Position numbers and translations under genes: made by a program
Origin: Microcaldota archaeon
Lineage (GTDB): Archaea > Micrarchaeota > Micrarchaeia > Micrarchaeales > Micrarchaeaceae
Direction: 5' to 3'
DNA: 13,983 nt
Assembly (NCBI GenBank): GCA_021851535.1
Contig: JAJZDT010000158.1
Coordinates: 1-13,983, forward strand
Part shown: positions 5,875 through 13,983 of the stretch, piece by piece
Layout: every line of letters begins with the position of its first letter
Numbering within the stretch: the first letter of the stretch is position 1
Notes under the pieces: generated by a model
What the model was told of the DNA's origin: nothing
Seen by the model: only the letters and a program-made list of their open reading frames with translations
Database searches by the model: none

Positions 5875-6405
5875 TTATTTAAACAAATCTGAAAACGCAT
5901 TTAAATACAGTATTGCTACCATTGTCTTTGCATCGTTTATTTTTTTATTAAGTATCATGTTCATAGCCACGCTTTTACTAACAGCTTTTATTTTTATATC
6001 TTCAGTAGGATCTAAGTGGCGCTCCCCTTTTCTTAACCTTGTTGCCAAAAATAAATGCTGAGTTTCACTTAATATTCCAGGGCTGCCATAAATTTTTGCC
6101 AAATATATTAATTTGCCAGCACGATACCCTGTTTCTTCTTTGAGTTCTCTTAAAGCCGCATTTTGAGGGGTCTCTCCTTCTTCTATATTTCCTGCAGGAA
6201 CTTCATAAATACTTTTATTTATTGCAGGCCGAAATTGGCGCTCCAAAATTATTTTTCCATCATTAGTTATAGGGATGATTACTACAACATCAGCTTTATC
6301 TACAGAAAAATAATTGTGGTTCATATTATTTAGATTAACGGAGCGCTCTAAAACCTTAAAAAAATTATTTGAATATTTTATCATTGCTTTTTTTGTTTTA
6401 ACCAT
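5875..6405 (-). CDS. Nudix hydrolase, ADP-ribose pyrophosphatase-like
   Basis: Nudix enzymes of this branch cleave ADP-ribose or related nucleoside diphosphates, clearing toxic by-products. The Nudix box GX5EX7REUXEEXGU is complete: G72, E78 and REL..EETGY at 86-94 in the 176-residue numbering. The preceding EVPAGNIEEGE and the following IYGSPGILSETQHLFLA resemble the ADP-ribose pyrophosphatase subgroup. The N-terminal strand region KVLERSVNLNN and VVVIIPITNDGKIILERQFR also fit. The start is uncertain: ATG 6405 was chosen over GTG 6414 (179 aa) and ATG 6384. A palindromic TATA-like element at 6431-6444 lies about 30 nt upstream of 6405. The gene has host-like composition and borders the integrated element. 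Confidence 0.9.
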   Translation of the reverse strand: MVKTKKAMIKYSNNFFKVLERSVNLNNMNHNYFSVDKADVVVIIPITNDGKIILERQFRPAINKSIYEVPAGNIEEGETPQNAALRELKEETGYRAGKLIYLAKIYGSPGILSETQHLFLATRLRKGERHLDPTEDIKIKAVSKSVAMNMILNKKINDAKTMVAILYLNAFSDLFK

Positions 6406-6430
6406 ATTATGCACTTAAAACATTACCCTG

Positions 6431-6444
6431 CATAAATATTTATG
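6431..6444. promoter_or_regulatory. Perfect palindrome CATAAATATTTATG at the Nudix promoter
   Basis: Fourteen bases that equal their own reverse complement, centred about 32 nt upstream of ATG 6405 on the minus strand. The AAATATTTA core can act as the TATA box. As a symmetric sequence it might also be a regulator site. It is the last clearly host-like sequence before composition changes near 6461. Confidence 0.4.
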
Positions 6445-6544
6445 TTAATTTTATACATCATTAAGCTACGCCGGCACATTCAAAACTTAGTTCCTTACGG
6501 TAAACTAATAGTCCAACGGTCTGCAAGCTAGCAACCTAGCAAGC

Positions 6545-6578
6545 GGCTGATTTTGCGGTGGGGGGGTCAAAATCAGCC
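6545..6578. repeat. 11-bp perfect hairpin with seven-G loop
   Basis: GGCTGATTTTG (6545-6555) and CAAAATCAGCC (6568-6578) form a perfect 11-bp stem around a 12-base loop with seven consecutive G (6560-6566). No T-run follows, so it does not resemble a terminator in either direction. It is among the strongest single inverted repeats in the window. Confidence 0.8.
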
Positions 6579-6616
6579 TTAACGCCGCCATGTCCTACGA
6601 AGTAGCTGCAGCAGCC

Positions 6617-6667
6617 GTAGCCCGCCGTGCGACACACAAAGGTGTCTTAAAGGCGGGCGGAGGCTAC
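6617..6667. repeat. Compound stem: GTAGCC/GGCTAC, GCCCGCC/GGCGGGC, GACAC/GTGTC
   Basis: Three nested complementary segments: an outer GTAGCC (6617-6622) with GGCTAC (6662-6667), a G+C-rich GCCCGCC (6620-6626) with GGCGGGC (6652-6658), and an apical GACAC (6631-6635) with GTGTC (6642-6646). The outer and middle stems share bases, so they are partly alternative. A multi-part stem like this is more typical of structured RNA than of a simple operator. Confidence 0.65.
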
Positions 6668-6670
6668 TTA

Positions 6671-6812
6671 AGACCTCAACTAAAGAGGTCTACGCCCTTC
6701 TTTGATGGTTAGAAGTCCCTCGTGAAATTCGGGCTGGCTTCGACTTCTCGTCGAAGGCGTACTAAAGACCTTTTCGAGCTTAGGTCTTTAGTCGCTTGGA
6801 GGTCTTTAGTTG
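6671..6812. repeat. ACTAAAG / CTTTAGT repeat family with mutually exclusive pairings
   Basis: ACTAAAG occurs at 6679-6685 and 6761-6767, and its complement CTTTAGT at 6786-6792 and 6804-6810. AGGTCTTTAGT is an exact 11-base direct repeat (6782-6792 and 6800-6810); either copy could pair with ACTAAAGACCT (6761-6771). The loop of the 6671-6691 hairpin (CAACTAAAGA, 6677-6686) is exactly complementary to TCTTTAGTTG (6803-6812). The segments therefore allow at least two exclusive folds. Confidence 0.6.
6738..6756. repeat. Short hairpin CTTCGAC / GTCGAAG
   Basis: A perfect 7-bp stem with the 5-base loop TTCTC, lying between the two ACTAAAG-containing units. It is too short to call alone but forms part of the ordered hairpin array. 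Confidence 0.6.
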
Positions 6813-6816
6813 GAGA

Positions 6817-6961
6817 CTCTACATGGCGTCTCTACATGAAACGCTAAAATAATGATGCGCAGTAGTTCATCGACAAAAAACGATGTTTTTGGGCTGTCGT
6901 CGAGACTTTTCTCTACATGGATTGCCAAAGTCATGTAGAGGAATTTTGGCCATGTAAAGAG
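6817..6961. repeat. CTCTACATG repeats (iteron- or operator-like)
   Basis: The 9-mer CTCTACATG occurs at 6817-6825, 6830-6838 and 6911-6919, with its exact complement at 6932-6940 and a degenerate inverted copy (CATGTAAAGAG) at 6951-6961. The first two are 13 bases apart start to start; the last three lie 22-72 bases before the TATA box of the winged-helix operon. Spacing and orientation would suit binding sites for the winged-helix protein, or replication iterons. Confidence 0.6.
6871..6899. repeat. Interrupted hairpin CGACA AAAAAC / GTTTTT TGTCG
   Basis: CGACA (6871-6875) pairs with TGTCG (6895-6899), and the inner AAAAAC (6876-6881) pairs with GTTTTT (6885-6890) around GAT, leaving a GGGC bulge. 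It lies between the two groups of CTCTACATG repeats. Confidence 0.5.
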
Positions 6962-6982
6962 ACCTCCAAATGTGTAGAAAGG

Positions 6983-7017
6983 CTTATATATCTATTAGGG
7001 TATATACTTATTAGGTG
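6983..7017 (+). promoter_or_regulatory. TATA box and ribosome-binding site of the winged-helix/RelE-like operon
   Basis: GAAAGG followed by CTTATATA (6983-6990) is a good archaeal BRE/TATA match. A start of transcription near 7012 is expected. GGTG at 7014-7017 lies seven bases before ATG 7025. These signals decide the start of the winged-helix gene against the in-frame ATG at 6917, which would lie upstream of the promoter. Confidence 0.7.
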
Positions 7018-7024
7018 TTATATT

Positions 7025-7291
7025 ATGCAAATCCAAAAGGAAGTTGTCCATTACCCTACGCTTAAGACCATACTGGCTATAGAGGAGGTAGTGAAGAAGG
7101 CCAATAACCCCGTCAGCAGGAACCAGATATTGGCCAGATTGCAGACTGGTGTAATGCGCTCGACCCTGAACCTTGCGCTTAACTACATGGAAAAGCGTGG
7201 GATGGTGCTTGAGACTAAGAAAGGGTTTATTTGGACATTCAACCCTAGCAAGAAGCTGGAGAAGGCCGAACAAGAGGGCTTACCGATGTGA
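7025..7291 (+). CDS. Small winged-helix DNA-binding protein, probable antitoxin/regulator
   Basis: An 88-residue protein starting MQIQKEVVHYPTLK. Helix 1 (about 13-25, KTILAIEEVVKKA), a turn NNPVSRNQI, the next helix ILARL, a recognition-helix-like segment MRSTLNLALNYMEKRG (about 44-59), then a beta wing MVLETKKGFIWTF (60-72) and a short tail ending in KAEQEGLPM. This pattern is that of a winged helix-turn-helix, here inferred from sequence layout, not from a search. It is the first gene of a two-gene operon, and its stop codon TGA overlaps the ribosome-binding motif (GTGATG, 7288-7293) of the next gene. Placement before a RelE-like gene suggests an antitoxin or autorepressor that could bind the CTCTACATG repeats upstream. 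It belongs to the G+C-richer element. Confidence 0.75.
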   Translation: MQIQKEVVHYPTLKTILAIEEVVKKANNPVSRNQILARLQTGVMRSTLNLALNYMEKRGMVLETKKGFIWTFNPSKKLEKAEQEGLPM

Positions 7292-7298
7292 TGTTTTG

Positions 7299-7694
7299 GT
7301 GGAGAAACGCGTTTCAATAAAACTGTTAGGAGATGCAAAAGACGCTTACCTAGCGCTAAAGAAGAAAGTTGCGGAGGATGCAGCAAAAGGCATAACCGAC
7401 TCGTTTCACCAAACGCTCCTTAAGTCAATAGACAACAAGATAGCAATATTGAAGGTTGATTATGACTATGGAATCCACATACCAAAGAAGAATGTAGCTC
7501 AGAAGTACATCTCGCTCTATGAAGTTACGAACTTATGGAAGGTCAATCTCTCAGGAGCTTGGCGCATGATCTACACAATAAAGCAACCGCAGAGGGAGGA
7601 CACAGAAGTTGAGATACTCTCAATCTGGCTAGACGTGCTGGATATAATAGACCATGATGAATACGACAAAATCTTCGGCTACAGAAAAAGATAG
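7299..7694 (+). CDS. Probable RelE/ParE-superfamily toxin
   Basis: A 131-residue product from GTG 7299 (TTG 7296 is possible), with GTGATG just upstream overlapping the stop of the winged-helix gene. The frame is open further back, but that part lies within the preceding gene. The first ~50 residues are helical and basic (VSIKLLGDAKDAYLALKKKV, then SFHQTLLKSIDNKIAILK). The C-terminal half has the RelE-like beta-sheet core: YEVTNLWKVNLSGAWRMIYTI (74-94) and VEILSIWLDVLDIIDHDEYDKIFGY (104-128). Similar 'W-R-h-I-Y' and 'DHxxYDKxFGY' signatures mark many archaeal RelE-like mRNA interferases. Arg89, Tyr92, His119 and Tyr128 are candidate functional residues. Ribonuclease activity is inferred, not shown. 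Its stop lies 3 bases from the convergent integrase stop. Confidence 0.7.
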   Translation: MEKRVSIKLLGDAKDAYLALKKKVAEDAAKGITDSFHQTLLKSIDNKIAILKVDYDYGIHIPKKNVAQKYISLYEVTNLWKVNLSGAWRMIYTIKQPQREDTEVEILSIWLDVLDIIDHDEYDKIFGYRKR

Positions 7695-7697
7695 ACT

Positions 7698-8546
7698 TTA
7701 GGCATTTCTAGTCAATCTTGATTTCAGGCCAACTGCTTCACTCAGCCCGAATGTGCTGTCTATCTCCTTGTATAGCTCCTCTTTGCGTGTGGTAATGTAG
7801 GTCATTGTGGTGCTTGGATCGCTGTGCCTTGCGAACCTGCTTGTCAGAACCAGATTCCCGTTTGTCTGTTTGGCGAAACGGGTTATTGCGTAATGCCTAA
7901 GGCTATGCGTGGTCAGCCTATGGAGGTGCCTTACGCTCCTGTTAGGGTTGGTTTCGTCTGAGGTATCGTATACCTCGTCCAACTCCGCCAGTCGCACATA
8001 GTGCCTGAACCTGTTGCGCACGTAGTTTTGCTCTAAGAATGGTACCGACCGCTTGGTTCTCAGCTTATCCGCATAGAATAGGTATCCCTGCGCCTTCTCA
8101 ATCTCAGCCTTGTGCTTCGAGATGAAGGCTATGGTATCCTTGAACAGCGGCATCGGTATCAATAACGAGTCCATTACCCGAGCCTTCTCGGTCTTCAATG
8201 TAAGTTCCCTAGTTTCTAGGTCTATTGAGTTTATGTTTACCCTGACTGCCTCGCCTATTCTAAGCCCAAGCTGCGCCTGATAGATGAATAGGAGGCGGAA
8301 CTTGTCAGAGTCTATAACGTGAAGGAACCTTTGAAGCTGCATGTCGGAAAACGCCTTTGAGAGCGAGCCATATTTCGGCGTCTTCCTCTTTCCGGCAAAC
8401 CTCTTGGTTTGGATCTTGTGCAATACTGATTGCAACTGCTGTAACTGGTGCCATGAGACGCTCATTGACACCTGCTTGAGGTTGTCGGAAAACCTATTGA
8501 AATCTTCCCTTCTTGAAGATTTCCGTTTCGGATTTCCGAACCCCAC
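7698..8546 (-). CDS. Tyrosine recombinase/integrase of the element
   Basis: It catalyses site-specific integration and excision. The catalytic domain is complete. In the 282-residue numbering from GTG 8546: Arg96 in LGLRIGEAVRV, a beta-hairpin lysine in LTLKTEKARV (about 118-120), His214-Ser-Leu-Arg217-His in THSLRHYAITRFA, His241 in RFARHSDPSTTMTY, and the nucleophile Tyr250. By contrast, only some 60 residues precede the SLSKAFSDMQLQRFL region that usually opens the catalytic domain, so the N-terminal core-binding domain is short or incomplete. The frame remains open upstream across the whole tRNA-Leu gene to a TTG at 8654. Possible real starts are GTG 8546 and ATG 8465. In a circular form the 5' end would be joined to sequence from the other end of the element, so this may be the larger part of an integrase split by integration. 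Confidence 0.85.
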   Translation of the reverse strand: MGFGNPKRKSSRREDFNRFSDNLKQVSMSVSWHQLQQLQSVLHKIQTKRFAGKRKTPKYGSLSKAFSDMQLQRFLHVIDSDKFRLLFIYQAQLGLRIGEAVRVNINSIDLETRELTLKTEKARVMDSLLIPMPLFKDTIAFISKHKAEIEKAQGYLFYADKLRTKRSVPFLEQNYVRNRFRHYVRLAELDEVYDTSDETNPNRSVRHLHRLTTHSLRHYAITRFAKQTNGNLVLTSRFARHSDPSTTMTYITTRKEELYKEIDSTFGLSEAVGLKSRLTRNA

Positions 8547-8567
8547 TTTGACTTCGTAAATTTGAGA

Positions 8568-8652
8568 TGCAGGGAGAGAGATTTGAACTCTCGCAGCCCT
8601 AAGGCACAAGGTCCTAAGCCTTGCGCGATTGACCAGACTCCGCCATCCCTGC
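8568..8652 (-). tRNA. tRNA-Leu (anticodon UAG), integration site
   Basis: A class II tRNA of 85 bases. The acceptor GCAGGGA pairs with TCCCTGC, discriminator A at 8568. The D stem is GCG/CGC. The anticodon arm CAAGG / CCTTG holds loop CTTAGGA, so the anticodon is TAG, with G37 next to it, the Trm5 target. The long variable arm GCC TTAG GGC is typical of Leu. The T arm is GAGAG TTCAAAT CTCTC. CCA is not encoded and there is no intron. The integrase gene begins just downstream in the same direction, so this tRNA is the likely attachment site, still with a complete 3' half. Confidence 0.97.
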
Positions 8653-8683
8653 AAATATGTTATTATTTCTAATAGAGAAATGC

Positions 8684-10090: not shown

Positions 10091-11293
10091 ATGAAACATG
10101 ATTATCAGACACGAAAGGAACTAAAAAGACTAGCTGAGATGCGAGGCTCTGGAACTGAATTAATAACTGTTTATGTTCCACATGATATGTCTATTGATGC
10201 ACAAATAGGAAAATTGCGAGATGAATACAACCAATCAGGAAATATAAAATCTAGTTCAACAAGACAGAATGTACAACGAGCAATAGATAAAATAATACAA
10301 TACTTAAAGACATTTAAAACAATACCTAATAATGGCATTGCAATTTTTTGCGGTAATATATCAAAAGAGCAGGCAAAACCACTTATTGAGCTTTTCTCTG
10401 TTGAACCCCCCGAACCATTAAAATCAAACATATATAGATGCGACTCCAGTTTTGTCGTTGAACCTATACAAAAAATGTTCGAAATGATGGATTTGTATTG
10501 CCTAGTTATTATGGATGGGAGAGATGCTACAATAGGTGTACTTCGTGGTTCGCATTTTTCTGTTGAAAAAAAACTGCGCTCATTTGCACATGCAAAAGTT
10601 AGAAAGGGAGGACAATCAGCTGCAAGATATGAGAGAGCAACATCTGAAAGCATAAATGATTATTATAAATCTGTAAGTGAAGGAGTAAATGAGGTTTATT
10701 TTAAATATAATTTTAAAATAAAAGGTCTACTTGTTGGAGGCCCTGGACCTATGAAGGAAAATTTTGTTAAAGCAAAACACCTAAATTACCAAGTAAAGGT
10801 TATTGGCATATTTGATACGGGATACGTCGACGAACATATGGGGGTGCATGAACTTTTAGAAAAGGCAAAATATATGCTTAGCGAAGAATCTGCCATGCAA
10901 GAACGTAAAATTGTTGAGAGATTTATGATTGAAATAGGGAATAAGGGAAATGCTGTTTACGGTTATGAAAATGTAAAACGCGTTCTTGAAAACAACAGCA
11001 TTGCGGTTCTTATAATAAGCGAGGATGTTGAATTTTATAGGTCGTTATATAGATGTAGCCTCTGTGGAAAAGAAGTAGAAAAAATAGAGGATGGTACTGC
11101 ACAATTAGATCTTACCCATGAATGTGGTGGTAAATTAGATTTACAAAAAAAATATGATGGAATTGAAGAATTGCTCAATATCGCAGAAAAAAATAACGTT
11201 GATACGATATTTATATCAAGCGATGGGCAGTATGGAAAACAACTATTGATGGGGTTCCATGGTATTGCAGCATTATTAAAATATAAAAGCTGA
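10091..11293 (+). CDS. prf1: Peptide chain release factor aRF1
   Basis: It recognises all three stop codons and triggers peptide release. The 400-residue protein has the three eRF1-type domains. Domain N has NIKS (51-54) and YRCDSSF (115-121, the YxCxxxF motif) for stop-codon reading. Domain M has the universal GGQ (173-175, RKGGQSAARYERA), whose Gln reaches the peptidyl-transferase centre. Domain C holds GLLVGGPGPMKENF and VIGIFDTGYVDEHMGVHELLE and a Cys-rich insert (RCSLCGKEVE then ECGGKLDL) before the final VDTIFISSDGQYGKQLL. Presence of intact GGQ and NIKS distinguishes it from Pelota. Family length is about 400-420, as here. The gene ends 48 bases from the convergent secreted-protein gene. 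Confidence 0.97.
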   Translation: MKHDYQTRKELKRLAEMRGSGTELITVYVPHDMSIDAQIGKLRDEYNQSGNIKSSSTRQNVQRAIDKIIQYLKTFKTIPNNGIAIFCGNISKEQAKPLIELFSVEPPEPLKSNIYRCDSSFVVEPIQKMFEMMDLYCLVIMDGRDATIGVLRGSHFSVEKKLRSFAHAKVRKGGQSAARYERATSESINDYYKSVSEGVNEVYFKYNFKIKGLLVGGPGPMKENFVKAKHLNYQVKVIGIFDTGYVDEHMGVHELLEKAKYMLSEESAMQERKIVERFMIEIGNKGNAVYGYENVKRVLENNSIAVLIISEDVEFYRSLYRCSLCGKEVEKIEDGTAQLDLTHECGGKLDLQKKYDGIEELLNIAEKNNVDTIFISSDGQYGKQLLMGFHGIAALLKYKS

Positions 11294-11341
11294 AAAATTT
11301 ATCTAAAATAAATGCCAATATAATTATATCATAATTTTAAC

Positions 11342-13561
11342 TCAACGCCTAAGAGTAGATAGGCGTTCAATTTGCCCATTGCTATCTATCTTATATTTTC
11401 TATCATGTGTAAATAATATGGGGCCTAAATTAGATCCTGTTATCGCATGATAGAACTCATTGAGTTTATGTATACTGTCTATTGGCTTTAAATTTACATA
11501 CCATTGTTTATTTAAAGGTGATTTAACAATAAAGCAGGCAGGAATTCCATTTTCAAATTTATACATATAATGTTTGTTTATAGGTTCTGGTTGGTATAAT
11601 GTTCCAAAATCAAACGTTTCTCCAGATTTTCTTTTATATACTAGAAAACCATTAATTTTTTCTATATCAGATGTAGAAACTATATGCATCGGTATATTCA
11701 ATGCTCTAAAAAATTTCTGCATTTTAAGACCATTTATAGGCAATGAAGTTTCAAAATCCGTTCCGCTAAATTGATAGAAAAATGGAGTAACGCCAACAGG
11801 ACCCCTCTGTGCTATGAATGGATTATCTTGAGAACCATCACGCACTCTCGAGGGATTAGTATTGTGTATAAGATAAAAACTTACTCCATTTATTATCTTT
11901 GTTGGAACATTTGAGTTATTAAATAATACTGGATTGTTATTATCAATCTTTTTATTTAGCACTGCAGCTTCTTGTTTTGACATTACATTTGGATAACCAG
12001 GTAAATTGTATGATATTACGCACTTCTTAGATTCCACATATATTGCATGTTTTCCATATACAATTTTTCCATGTATAGACTTTGCCTCCTCTTCGATAGA
12101 TTTTAATAAAACACCAGAAAGCGTTCCAGAAATTTGAGAGGTATAATAAGAGTATGGATTTGGCTTTCCACTATATATTAGATCTAAGAATTTATTCTTT
12201 TTTATAATATCTTTGAATTTTAAATATTCCTTTTCGGATTTTGCTAATGGGGTTATTATATTATTTAGATTATAATGACCGGGTTTTATAAATTCAAAAG
12301 ATAAATATGGATGACCTATAGTACCATCCTGATAAAGTAATGAACGTATTTTCCAAAGATTATTGAAAAGAAGCGATTGATTGTATATGAAACTATAACC
12401 ACCCACTTTTATACAATAAAAAATTTTATTTATATTTGATTCGGGCTTTTTAAGCCTCAATTCTTTACTTGGATAAATTTCTTTATATATATTTCTAAGC
12501 TCTTTTTTTGATTTTATTATGCTTGGATATTCTATATGTGCACCTCCATACATCATAATATCATTAAATGAATAATATCCTGCACCGTAGTAACGCGGAG
12601 AGTTTTTTGTTATAACAAATGGCGATTCCTTCGTACCATCGCCCATCGAAGGCGTATAATTTCTAACATATATTAAATTAATACCGCGATATATGCAGTA
12701 CATGTTTTTCTTTGGAAAATTTTGAATCTCTATTAATGGATGGTATACTTCACGCGAAAACCGCATATTTGTTATATGACCAAAAAAATCAAACGGTATT
12801 GTATACTCACGCGTATAGCAATTTTTTGGTAGATATTGAATAAATCTATAATGATGCAGATAATCATTTGAATGTATACACGCATTTATAAATTCCGAAT
12901 TGTTCATGCCGTAAAACATTGGAGAGTTTTTTGTAAAATTATATATTGCATTAAGATCCCGTATAAAATGCCGATATGTGCACTTTGTTGGCGTTTCTAT
13001 CCAAAAAACTTTTTCTGCTAATGGGGAATTATTTCCAAATGCCTGCGCCACACCTGATAGATCTATTGCTATTTGAAATGCATAATAGCCTAAGCCATCA
13101 TAGGATCCTATTGCACCTCGTCCATTATATGAGAATAATATAGGACCATCCCTATATAATGATTTTATATTAGATAGCATATTTGAATTTATAACATATA
13201 CTTCCTGTGGGTTATTTACGTTATTTATTGCAACACGAAGCGGTGAAAATTTAATATAAGGCGCATTTTTCGTTCCGTTACCATTTTCATTTTTAGGTGC
13301 ATTAATAGAGTTAAATTTCTCACCGTTAACATATATAGCATTGCCAGACTTATGTATATATTTTATTGACATAGGTTCGATATAATCATTCGCATTATTT
13401 TGAAATGCAAACATATTCTGTGTATTTGCCCCAATTAAAACAGCTGTGCTTACGGCAATAGTGATAATAAGAGCCCTTGCTCTACGTATTAGATTATTAT
13501 TTGCATTGATTGCTAATGTATTATTAATTTCATCCTGTTTTATGCTATTTTTTATAACCAT
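11342..13561 (-). CDS. Large secreted or anchored protein with four DG(T/S)xxxP-type repeats, unknown family
   Basis: The 739-residue family is not recognised. A charged N-terminus with RRAR (26-29) is followed by one hydrophobic segment (30-45, ALIITIAVSTAVLIGA) and then FAFQNNA, consistent with a signal peptide or anchor. The rest is Tyr/Asn/Ile-rich and probably outside the cell. Four copies of a motif recur: NGNGTKNAPYI (93-103), MGDGTKESPFV (306-316), YQDGTIGHPYL (410-420), VRDGSQDNPFI (573-583), each soon preceded by a strand such as INLIYVRNYTP or VSFYLIHNTNP and followed by an aromatic element (GLGYYAF, GAGYYSF, KPGHYNL, FFYQF). A second recurring element is a helix ending in DGPILFSYN (138-146), NSPMFYGMN (212-220), NNPVLFNNS (542-550) or LGPILFTHD (712-720). 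ATG 13561 has GGTG six bases upstream. No C-terminal anchor or sorting signal is visible. Confidence 0.8.
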   Translation of the reverse strand: MVIKNSIKQDEINNTLAINANNNLIRRARALIITIAVSTAVLIGANTQNMFAFQNNANDYIEPMSIKYIHKSGNAIYVNGEKFNSINAPKNENGNGTKNAPYIKFSPLRVAINNVNNPQEVYVINSNMLSNIKSLYRDGPILFSYNGRGAIGSYDGLGYYAFQIAIDLSGVAQAFGNNSPLAEKVFWIETPTKCTYRHFIRDLNAIYNFTKNSPMFYGMNNSEFINACIHSNDYLHHYRFIQYLPKNCYTREYTIPFDFFGHITNMRFSREVYHPLIEIQNFPKKNMYCIYRGINLIYVRNYTPSMGDGTKESPFVITKNSPRYYGAGYYSFNDIMMYGGAHIEYPSIIKSKKELRNIYKEIYPSKELRLKKPESNINKIFYCIKVGGYSFIYNQSLLFNNLWKIRSLLYQDGTIGHPYLSFEFIKPGHYNLNNIITPLAKSEKEYLKFKDIIKKNKFLDLIYSGKPNPYSYYTSQISGTLSGVLLKSIEEEAKSIHGKIVYGKHAIYVESKKCVISYNLPGYPNVMSKQEAAVLNKKIDNNNPVLFNNSNVPTKIINGVSFYLIHNTNPSRVRDGSQDNPFIAQRGPVGVTPFFYQFSGTDFETSLPINGLKMQKFFRALNIPMHIVSTSDIEKINGFLVYKRKSGETFDFGTLYQPEPINKHYMYKFENGIPACFIVKSPLNKQWYVNLKPIDSIHKLNEFYHAITGSNLGPILFTHDRKYKIDSNGQIERLSTLRR

Positions 13562-13567
13562 TTAGTA

Positions 13568-13604
13568 CACCATAAATGCCACTGCAAAAATATTATTTAT
13601 AAAT
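13568..13604 (-). promoter_or_regulatory. Promoter and ribosome-binding site of the 739-residue gene
   Basis: ATTTATAAAT (13595-13604) reads the same on both strands and lies about 38 nt before ATG 13561. GGTG (13568-13571 on the minus strand) is six bases before it. The remaining gap to 13714 is very A+T-rich, and I see nothing else in it. Confidence 0.5.
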
Positions 13605-13714
13605 AATTAAAATATATGTAATCACATTTGACAATAAACGTAAATATGTGTTATATTTTAATACGCTCCAAATATTATTGTATATTAATTAGTTATACAA
13701 ATGATAAATTGACT

Positions 13715-13983
13715 TCATGCTGGCGTATTTATCGGACCAATCGATGAACTTATACTTCCAGGAGGTATAAATGCCCTTGTATCAACCCAATTGGCATGCA
13801 TTACACCACCAGTTTGATTATTGAATATACCTATTGCTTCACTGCCAACAGGGTACTGATAATTGTACTTGCGCATCTGCGTTTGCAATCCATAATCATA
13901 ACTAAAGTACATCGTACCATTAGATGCATTAATGTTTGAAAATCCTACACTATAGATATTTTGACCTAATGGCGCAAGAGTTG
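13715..13983 (-). CDS. C-terminal part of an unidentified, probably extracytoplasmic protein (cut by right edge)
   Basis: The frame is open from the window edge to TGA at 13715-13717, giving the last 88 residues, beginning TLAPLGQNIYSVGF. An internal ATG at 13912 would give 65 aa, but the frame continues upstream without a stop, so a longer gene is likely. The segment is Tyr/Asn/Gly/Ser-rich with predicted short strands (MYFSYDYGLQTQM, EAIGIFNNQTGG, ANWVDTRAFIPPG) and three N-x-S/T sequons (NAS, NGT, NQT), and ends SSSIGPINTPA. This is typical of surface or pilus-like proteins, but no family is recognised. It lies 153 bases upstream of the 739-residue gene on the same strand, and both may belong to a surface-protein locus. 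Confidence 0.65.
   Translation of the reverse strand, partial: TLAPLGQNIYSVGFSNINASNGTMYFSYDYGLQTQMRKYNYQYPVGSEAIGIFNNQTGGVMHANWVDTRAFIPPGSISSSIGPINTPA

What the first reader, a model, noticed from the sequence alone, without database searches (positions are those of the whole stretch)
6461..8568. Minimal integrative element: structured DNA module + winged helix + RelE-like gene + integrase in tRNA-Leu
Seen: a G+C-richer island of about 2.1 kb between host-like A+T-rich flanks, ending at a tRNA 3' end where a tyrosine recombinase begins, with only two other genes and a hairpin array. Known: archaeal elements integrate into tRNA genes using tyrosine recombinases. Inferred: this is a very small, possibly satellite-like element that persists through a toxin-antitoxin pair and has no replication protein of its own. 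The combination may be a distinct element family.
Basis: partly seen in the sequence, partly recalled or inferred. Interest (0 to 1): 0.72.

Follow-up and report, generated by a model that had tools for sequence, protein, structure and literature searches.

The report
Small archaeal tRNA-inserted toxin-antitoxin element
This stretch looks like a copy of a small, horizontally spreading DNA element that inserts itself into transfer-RNA genes of tiny archaea, carrying little more than its own integration enzyme, a conserved folded DNA segment and an exchangeable toxin-antitoxin pair; this copy appears to have lost its left end.

Summary
A 46% G+C island (host sample 33%) holds a winged-helix gene, a RelE/ParE-fold gene, an intact tyrosine recombinase and a hairpin-rich region, ending at tRNA-Leu(TAG). 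It is a mobile-element copy: the arrangement recurs in other Micrarchaeota, and direct repeats, mostly of a tRNA 3' end, bound 22 related elements of 0.96-6.7 kb. Its two small proteins are 99% identical to those of another genus whose SerS is only 61% identical. In the window itself no left repeat was found, and the nearest relative is 4.3 kb, so 'a complete 2.1 kb element' is not supported: more likely a left-truncated copy. No replication protein was recognised in the window. Kind: cryptic integrated element with a classical integrase; I found no description of this family in the papers searched. Replication, transfer and toxicity remain inferred.

The parts
8566..8653 (-). tRNA-Leu (anticodon TAG); its 3' end is the integration site
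   Evidence: ARAGORN, Rfam RF00005 57.1 bits
8568..8598 (-). right attachment site (3' part of the tRNA), inferred from the direct repeats of relatives
   Evidence: window 8568-8598 matches two extra att copies of L009, and 8558-8596 matches the left att of L061r; repeats listed
7698..8465 (-). tyrosine recombinase (integrase), 255 aa from the ATG; frame open up to 8654
   Evidence: PF00589, PHROG 216 and 1, integrase; R132, K157, H250, R253, H277, Y286 (numbering of the 318-aa frame) invariant in 13 of 13 aligned
7296..7694 (+). RelE/ParE-fold protein, putative toxin (start TTG 7296 or GTG 7299)
7025..7291 (+). 88-aa winged-helix protein, putative antitoxin/autoregulator
   Evidence: AlphaFold topology H-H-H-H-E-E-H, pLDDT 77; Pfam winged-helix hits below cut-off; the 30 best rows, own included, are 63-100% identical
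6980..7024 (+). promoter/operator of the wHTH gene: TATA-like TTATATAT and, just downstream, two TATTAGG repeats 16 bp apart (6993, 7009)
   Evidence: alignment of 19 loci: first TATTAGG in 17, second in 15
6468..6668 (+). conserved structured module; hairpin 1 at 6545-6578, hairpin 2 at about 6611-6667
   Evidence: matches, from nearly whole to fragments of about 30 bp, in 40 of 295 phylum genomes, own included; 22-sequence alignment, 98.1% of cells paired, 5 of 27 pairs with changes on both sides against 1.6 in shuffles
6669..6970 (+). further hairpins between module and operator; less widely conserved
   Evidence: inverted repeats, fold of 6461-6970 z -6.3, matches in fewer relatives

Best explanation
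Window 6461-8653 is one copy of a family of small integrative elements of Micrarchaeota. The core is a classical (not self-splitting) tyrosine recombinase reading away from the tRNA 3' end, an att site made of that 3' end, and a conserved two-hairpin module; between module and integrase stop lies a slot filled by a toxin-antitoxin pair, here wHTH plus RelE-fold protein. Shown: recurrence, att repeats in relatives, horizontal transfer, different pairs in the slot, a conserved promoter motif. Inferred: the recombinase joins the element's att to the tRNA gene, restoring the tRNA; the wHTH represses its own promoter and counters the toxin, so that cells losing the element are penalised; the hairpin module serves copying or transfer of the excised DNA by borrowed machinery. 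In this copy the left end, with the second att and any cargo, has probably been lost, so it is probably immobile although its integrase looks intact.
For: Same order wHTH-RelE-integrase-tRNA-Leu, with whole or broken integrase, in other genomes. DNA identity 84.7% over 2045 bp with G012; at fourfold sites wHTH 81% (26 sites), RelE-like 77% (30), against 24% for SerS (68); SerS 61% aa. 16 of 32 tRNAs with an adjacent integrase carry a repeat of their 3' end, among 75 loci; of 18 other tRNAs 3 do, and these 3 border truncated or integrase-free members. Slot contents by Pfam: HicA, HicB, ParE, DUF4258, DUF2283; HepT with a nucleotidyltransferase and AbiEi/AbiEii in integrase-free elements. Eight loci without a recognised slot pair have module-to-stop distances of 166-172 bp. 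Composition. Left repeat not found.
Against: No excised circle or read junction was examined; 16 of 32 integrase-adjacent tRNAs, the window's among them, show no repeat (several of these loci are cut by contig ends). The left limit is uncertain: cargo of relatives can be A+T rich, so some genes left of 6461 could still be cargo. Toxicity is untested; Foldseek gave no significant hit for the RelE-like model and no profile matched it. The covariation energy term of the module is small and one shuffle measure is not exceptional (further pair types, 61 of 500 shuffles as high). Slot filling is not universal: several of the 40 integrase loci have other or unrecognised genes there. Loss of the left end is an inference from absence.
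Confidence: 0.8

Rival explanations
1. It is a complete, still mobile 2.1 kb element whose left att is too diverged or too short to see.
For: Complete-looking integrase; relatives as small as 0.96, 1.4 and 1.9 kb between repeats exist; composition changes sharply near 6461.
Against: Local alignment of the att region with 6380-6700 is no better than shuffles (p about 0.54). In L015 about 175 bp separate the left att from the start of the module match, while here the Nudix gene starts 47-54 bp away, leaving little room. The nearest relative is 4.3 kb.
Confidence: 0.14
2. A chromosomal toxin-antitoxin locus and an unrelated old integrase that merely lie side by side at a tRNA.
For: In 10 of 11 loci L019-L029 a wHTH-RelE pair lies without a match to this integrase or a tRNA-Leu in the stretch held, so the cassette can live alone.
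Against: The same arrangement recurs with the two gene ends within about 15 bp of each other (window, L010, L016, L061, L065) and with att repeats in L010 and L061; other toxin-antitoxin pairs lie in the same interval.
Confidence: 0.04
3. The wHTH protein is the element's replication initiator, binding the hairpin region, and the element is a tiny integrating plasmid; the RelE-like protein is its partner in copy control.
For: A wHTH was suggested as possible initiator for the 2.6 kb thaumarchaeal element NitUzo-E2, with the authors' own caution; no other replication gene was recognised in the window.
Against: Elements with HicBA, ParE or no recognised pair keep the module (whole or a fragment) and integrase but show no wHTH match, so it is not a required initiator; its conserved DNA repeats lie at its own promoter; in L015 the wHTH is fused to a nucleotidyltransferase domain beside HepT.
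Confidence: 0.08

Closest known systems
Cryptic integrated elements (CIE) of Thaumarchaeota, smallest NitUzo-E2, 2.6 kb (Krupovic et al. 2019, PMC6563490; passages and section 13 seen)
   Same: Tyrosine integrase at a host target, att repeats in most elements (68 of 74 over all classes in that paper), a wHTH gene in the smallest, often no recognised replication protein.
   Different: The thaumarchaeal CIE are said to have no signature genes; here one integrase family plus a conserved hairpin module and a toxin-antitoxin slot mark a family in another phylum, with bounded copies down to 0.96 kb.
Classical (pNOB8-like) versus suicidal (SSV-like) archaeal integrases (review PMC8371274, passages seen)
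   Same: Works like the classical type: the integrase gene stays whole after integration.
   Different: Not the suicidal type. The frame running through the tRNA means the junction supplies upstream codons, though the likely start lies inside the element.
RelBE/ParDE type II toxin-antitoxin systems
   Same: RelE/ParE fold, small upstream partner gene ending four bases before the toxin's first possible start, conserved repeats at the promoter.
   Different: 131-132 aa with a long helical pair, no family match, and a winged-helix partner rather than the ribbon-helix-helix or Phd-type antitoxins recalled for these systems.
Hitcher and satellite elements such as PICMI (PMC10803314) and the hitcher review PMC11389934 (search listing only)
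   Same: Small, without recognised transfer genes.
   Different: No packaging or capsid-interfering gene recognised in the window, and scans of viral contigs with the wHTH and integrase found no relative.

Membership tests
Archaeal cryptic integrated element | Integrase gene inside the element | tested here: met
   PF00589 and intact catalytic residues
Archaeal cryptic integrated element | Direct repeats at both ends, window copy (usual rather than strict: determined for 68 of 74 elements of all classes in PMC6563490) | tested here: not met
   I therefore file the window as a degraded copy, and call the family CIE-like on the strength of its relatives
Archaeal cryptic integrated element | Direct repeats at both ends, relatives | tested here: met
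   16 of 32 integrase-adjacent tRNAs, plus L009, L014, L015, L016 and L157 (no tRNA detected there)
Archaeal cryptic integrated element | No virus, conjugation or casposon hallmark genes | tested here: met
   window genes searched in Pfam, PHROGs, NCBIfam; of relatives' genes only 30 were scanned in Pfam, with no such hit
Suicidal (SSV-type) integrase element | att inside the integrase gene, gene split by integration; PF16795 domain (per PMC8371274) | tested here: not met
   one uninterrupted frame on the element side with the catalytic residues; PF00589 found and no PF16795
RelBE/ParDE toxin-antitoxin system | RelE/ParE-fold toxin | tested here: met
RelBE/ParDE toxin-antitoxin system | Adjacent antitoxin that represses the operon | tested here: inconclusive
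   adjacent wHTH and conserved promoter repeats; binding not tested
RelBE/ParDE toxin-antitoxin system | Toxicity neutralised by the partner | not testable with these tools
   needs expression experiments
Phage or virus satellite | Packaging or interference with a helper virus | not tested
   no helper known; viral-contig scans with the wHTH and the integrase found no relative

The most novel reading that the evidence does not exclude
A family, common in two Micrarchaeota families, of minimalist integrative elements whose shared core is only an integrase and a covarying two-hairpin DNA module (a hairpin origin or transfer site used by borrowed machinery, indifferent to orientation since the hairpin loop is found inverted), with a plug-in slot beside the integrase that takes unrelated toxin-antitoxin pairs and a left arm that takes free cargo: in effect a modular cassette carrier that moves genes among ultrasmall archaea without its own replication or transfer genes.
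Probability: 0.4. Interest if true: 0.7.

Novelty: new variant of a known kind. Interest (0 to 1): 0.55.

Why it matters
How genes move among genome-reduced DPANN archaea is, to my knowledge, little studied. A common element at defined tRNA sites, with a constant core and an exchangeable addiction slot, would be a concrete vehicle: relatives carry restriction-modification-type, oxidoreductase and cation-efflux genes, and bounded copies show how little DNA such an element needs. It makes questions testable: what the hairpin module does, and who replicates or transfers the element.

Tried and rejected
Virus or plasmid origin: scans of IMG/VR with the wHTH and integrase, of PLSDB with the wHTH and of the phage collection with the integrase found no relative. 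A scan of viral contigs for part of hairpin 1 gave 46 stretches; none matches the full module (E up to 1e-3) or the element genes (E up to 1e-5), so I take them as chance.

Structured module as a known RNA: no Rfam family reached its gathering score in the window except tRNA. An RNA role is not excluded; the loop found as a C run instead of a G run in 6 of 22 copies made me prefer a DNA role, which is a weak argument. The 22 aligned copies are those I passed on of 26 extracted; L079, L080, L088 and L090 were left out.

Nudix gene as element cargo: relatives are common in the order (97 of 99 genomes, best-scoring other match 47% identical), but the 11 best other loci lack tRNA-Leu, serS and element genes nearby; its GC3 is host-like. 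Not decided, since cargo can also be A+T rich.
Full report
What is there. The window lies in a 732 kb, 83-contig, 77% complete genome whose nearest named hits are Candidatus Micrarchaeota. At 8566-8653 on the minus strand is tRNA-Leu(TAG). From its 3' end a tyrosine recombinase frame runs leftwards to 7698; the ATG that gives the 255-aa length of several close relatives is at 8465. Three bases beyond its stop the convergent RelE-like gene ends at 7694, preceded by the 88-aa wHTH gene (7025-7291). Left of that is a promoter and about 500 bp rich in hairpins, up to about 6461.

The island is foreign. It has 46.3% G+C against 33.0 (sd 2.5) in 417 host windows from 115 kb of this genome, none as high. 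GC3 is 64, 51 and 63% in wHTH, RelE-like and integrase genes, and 21-32% in five other genes of the window. G012, of another genus of the same family, has the same wHTH and RelE-like proteins at 99%, while SerS is 61% identical. At fourfold sites identity is 81% (26 sites) and 77% (30) for the pair, 48% (54) for the integrase and 24% (68) for SerS. The pair thus seems more recently shared than the integrase beside it, which suggests cassette exchange as well as element transfer; the site numbers are small.

It belongs to a family of tRNA-inserted elements. I analysed 75 loci together (window, 23, 11, 40). 32 tRNAs in them have an integrase of this family starting at their 3' end: 19 Leu, 6 Glu, 3 Ala, 2 Val, 1 Gln, 1 Pro. 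In 16 of 32 the 3' end is repeated elsewhere in the locus; the other 16 include the window, L065, L124 and L129, and several loci cut by contig ends. Of 18 other tRNAs 3 have such a repeat, and these border truncated or integrase-free members (L009, L014, L015). L009 has four att copies in a row, i.e. three intervals in tandem. With L016, which has a 69-bp repeat but no tRNA call, I listed 22 bounded elements of 0.96 to 6.7 kb; L157, found later, has a 26-bp repeat 7.4 kb apart and no tRNA call. L014, at 958 bp, holds only wHTH and RelE-like genes; whether it can move with an integrase supplied by others is unknown.

Site history. Among the 30 best serS loci (133 of 158 genomes had a match), 24 have tRNA-Leu upstream within the stretch held and 7 an integrase of this family beside it, the window included in both. 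So serS-tRNA-Leu looks like old host order and the element like an occasional occupant. Three genomes of one genus (G006, G076, G231) have bounded elements with different left cargo at the TAG tRNA; G076 and G231 share the DUF2283 pair in the slot.

Left end. No copy of the att was found left of the window's element or elsewhere in the contig read. Homology with relatives starts at 6468 at the earliest, 54 bp from the Nudix gene. In G012 the element continues another 2.3 kb beyond the stretch shared with the window, with A+T-rich genes that look like membrane proteins by eye, to its left att. I conclude that the window copy has probably lost its left arm. The alternative, an invisible att, is kept as a rival.

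The structured module. Window 6470-6668 finds matches, from nearly whole to fragments of about 30 bp, in 40 of 295 genomes of the phylum sample: 16 in the host's family, 23 in the other family of the order, 1 outside with a 27-bp match. The integrase finds 118 of 295, 101 of them in these two families; the wHTH 135 of 295, most of them distant. Two hairpins are kept in 22 aligned copies: 98.1% of 590 cells paired, 5 of 27 pairs and 11 cells changed on both sides; shuffles give 1.6 pairs and 2.0 cells, none of 500 reaching the observed values, while the number of further pair types (15 against 13.4) is reached by 61 of 500; slid versions give at most 2 pairs. RNAalifold's covariation term is small (-0.56), and the copies are related, so this supports but does not prove selection on pairing. 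In 6 of 22 copies the loop of hairpin 1 is a C run instead of a G run, as if the hairpin were turned round. Modules without a nearby integrase match also exist (L158-L161); in L160 the module is followed by genes that look like HicB and HicA by eye. In L157 the module lies near the far att, not beside the integrase.

The slot. In one search I looked beyond the integrase stop in 40 loci. Five have wHTH-RelE (window, L010 with broken integrase, L016, L061, L065). Three have a HicB-HicA pair (L123 by Pfam; L125 and L126 by near-identical proteins). ParE is Pfam-supported in L131 and L152, with a near-identical protein in L133. DUF2283 is Pfam-supported in L122, L128 (with DUF4258 before it), L130 (beside broken remains of a wHTH-RelE pair) and L140, with alike proteins by eye in L124, L127, L129 and L139. 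Eight have no recognised pair, and there the module match ends 166-172 bp from the stop (L137, L143, L145, L146, L149, L151, L153, L156). The remaining loci have other or unrecognised genes, only a partner-like gene (L144, L148, by eye), or end at the contig edge; L142 has its module match at 241 bp and L135 at 350 bp, without a recognised pair. L015, an integrase-free member, has the wHTH fused to a nucleotidyltransferase beside HepT, and the tandem array L009 holds AbiEi/AbiEii. That DUF2283 and DUF4258 belong to toxin-antitoxin pairs is recalled, not from a call.

Known or new. Small integrase-bearing archaeal elements at tRNA genes are a known kind: thaumarchaeal CIE reach down to 2.6 kb, with integrase, wHTH and two unknown proteins (PMC6563490, section 13). 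The review of archaeal tyrosine recombinases (PMC8371274) does not contain the words DPANN, Micrarchaeota or Nanoarchaeota, and PMC12302457 on acidophile islands does not contain Micrarchaeota. Judged by the titles and abstract openings listed, searches showed no paper on such elements in Micrarchaeota; subscription papers are largely not held, and a 2025 paper on virus satellites of haloarchaea and DPANN symbionts was seen only as a reference. I rate it a new variant of a known kind. On rechecking I lowered the main confidence from 0.82 to 0.80, because slot filling and module position vary more than I first wrote.

Noticed in passing
L003 (own genome, contig C52) 4896-5015: A second, short remnant of the same integrase family (53% over 42 residues) lies about 100 bp past the 3' end of tRNA-Asp(GTC), next to a frame that looks like a DNA cytosine methyltransferase by eye.
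   Followed up: partly
L015:5001-5896: The element's wHTH is fused to a nucleotidyltransferase domain and followed by HepT, within a 1.4 kb element at tRNA-Leu(CAG).
   Followed up: partly
window 6545-6578 and copies in L124, L127, L145, L146, L149, L151: The loop of hairpin 1 is a G run in most copies and a C run in 6 of 22, as if the hairpin had been inverted in place.
   Followed up: no
L128:2372-5257, L152:4606-5965, L145:3263-7966: Cargo of relatives by Pfam: L128 a pyridine-nucleotide disulphide oxidoreductase (mercuric-reductase-like by eye) with an ArsR-type regulator; L152 an LMWPc-family protein and a cation efflux protein; L145 an OLD-like ATPase and an Eco57I-type methylase (type IIG-like in PADLOC).
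   Followed up: partly
window 11342-13561: A 739-aa protein without a Pfam match at E up to 0.5; its N-terminus looks like a signal or membrane segment by eye.
   Followed up: no
window 10517-13983: The held contig C38 is given as 21492 bases although the window is placed at 10977-24959 of it, so the right part of the window is not in the held copy as numbered.
   Followed up: no
L019-L029: wHTH genes 60-81% identical, in 10 of 11 loci with the RelE-like gene, occur without a match to this integrase or a tRNA-Leu in the stretch held, in records named Micrarchaeota, Marsarchaeota, Diapherotrites or just archaeon.
   Followed up: partly
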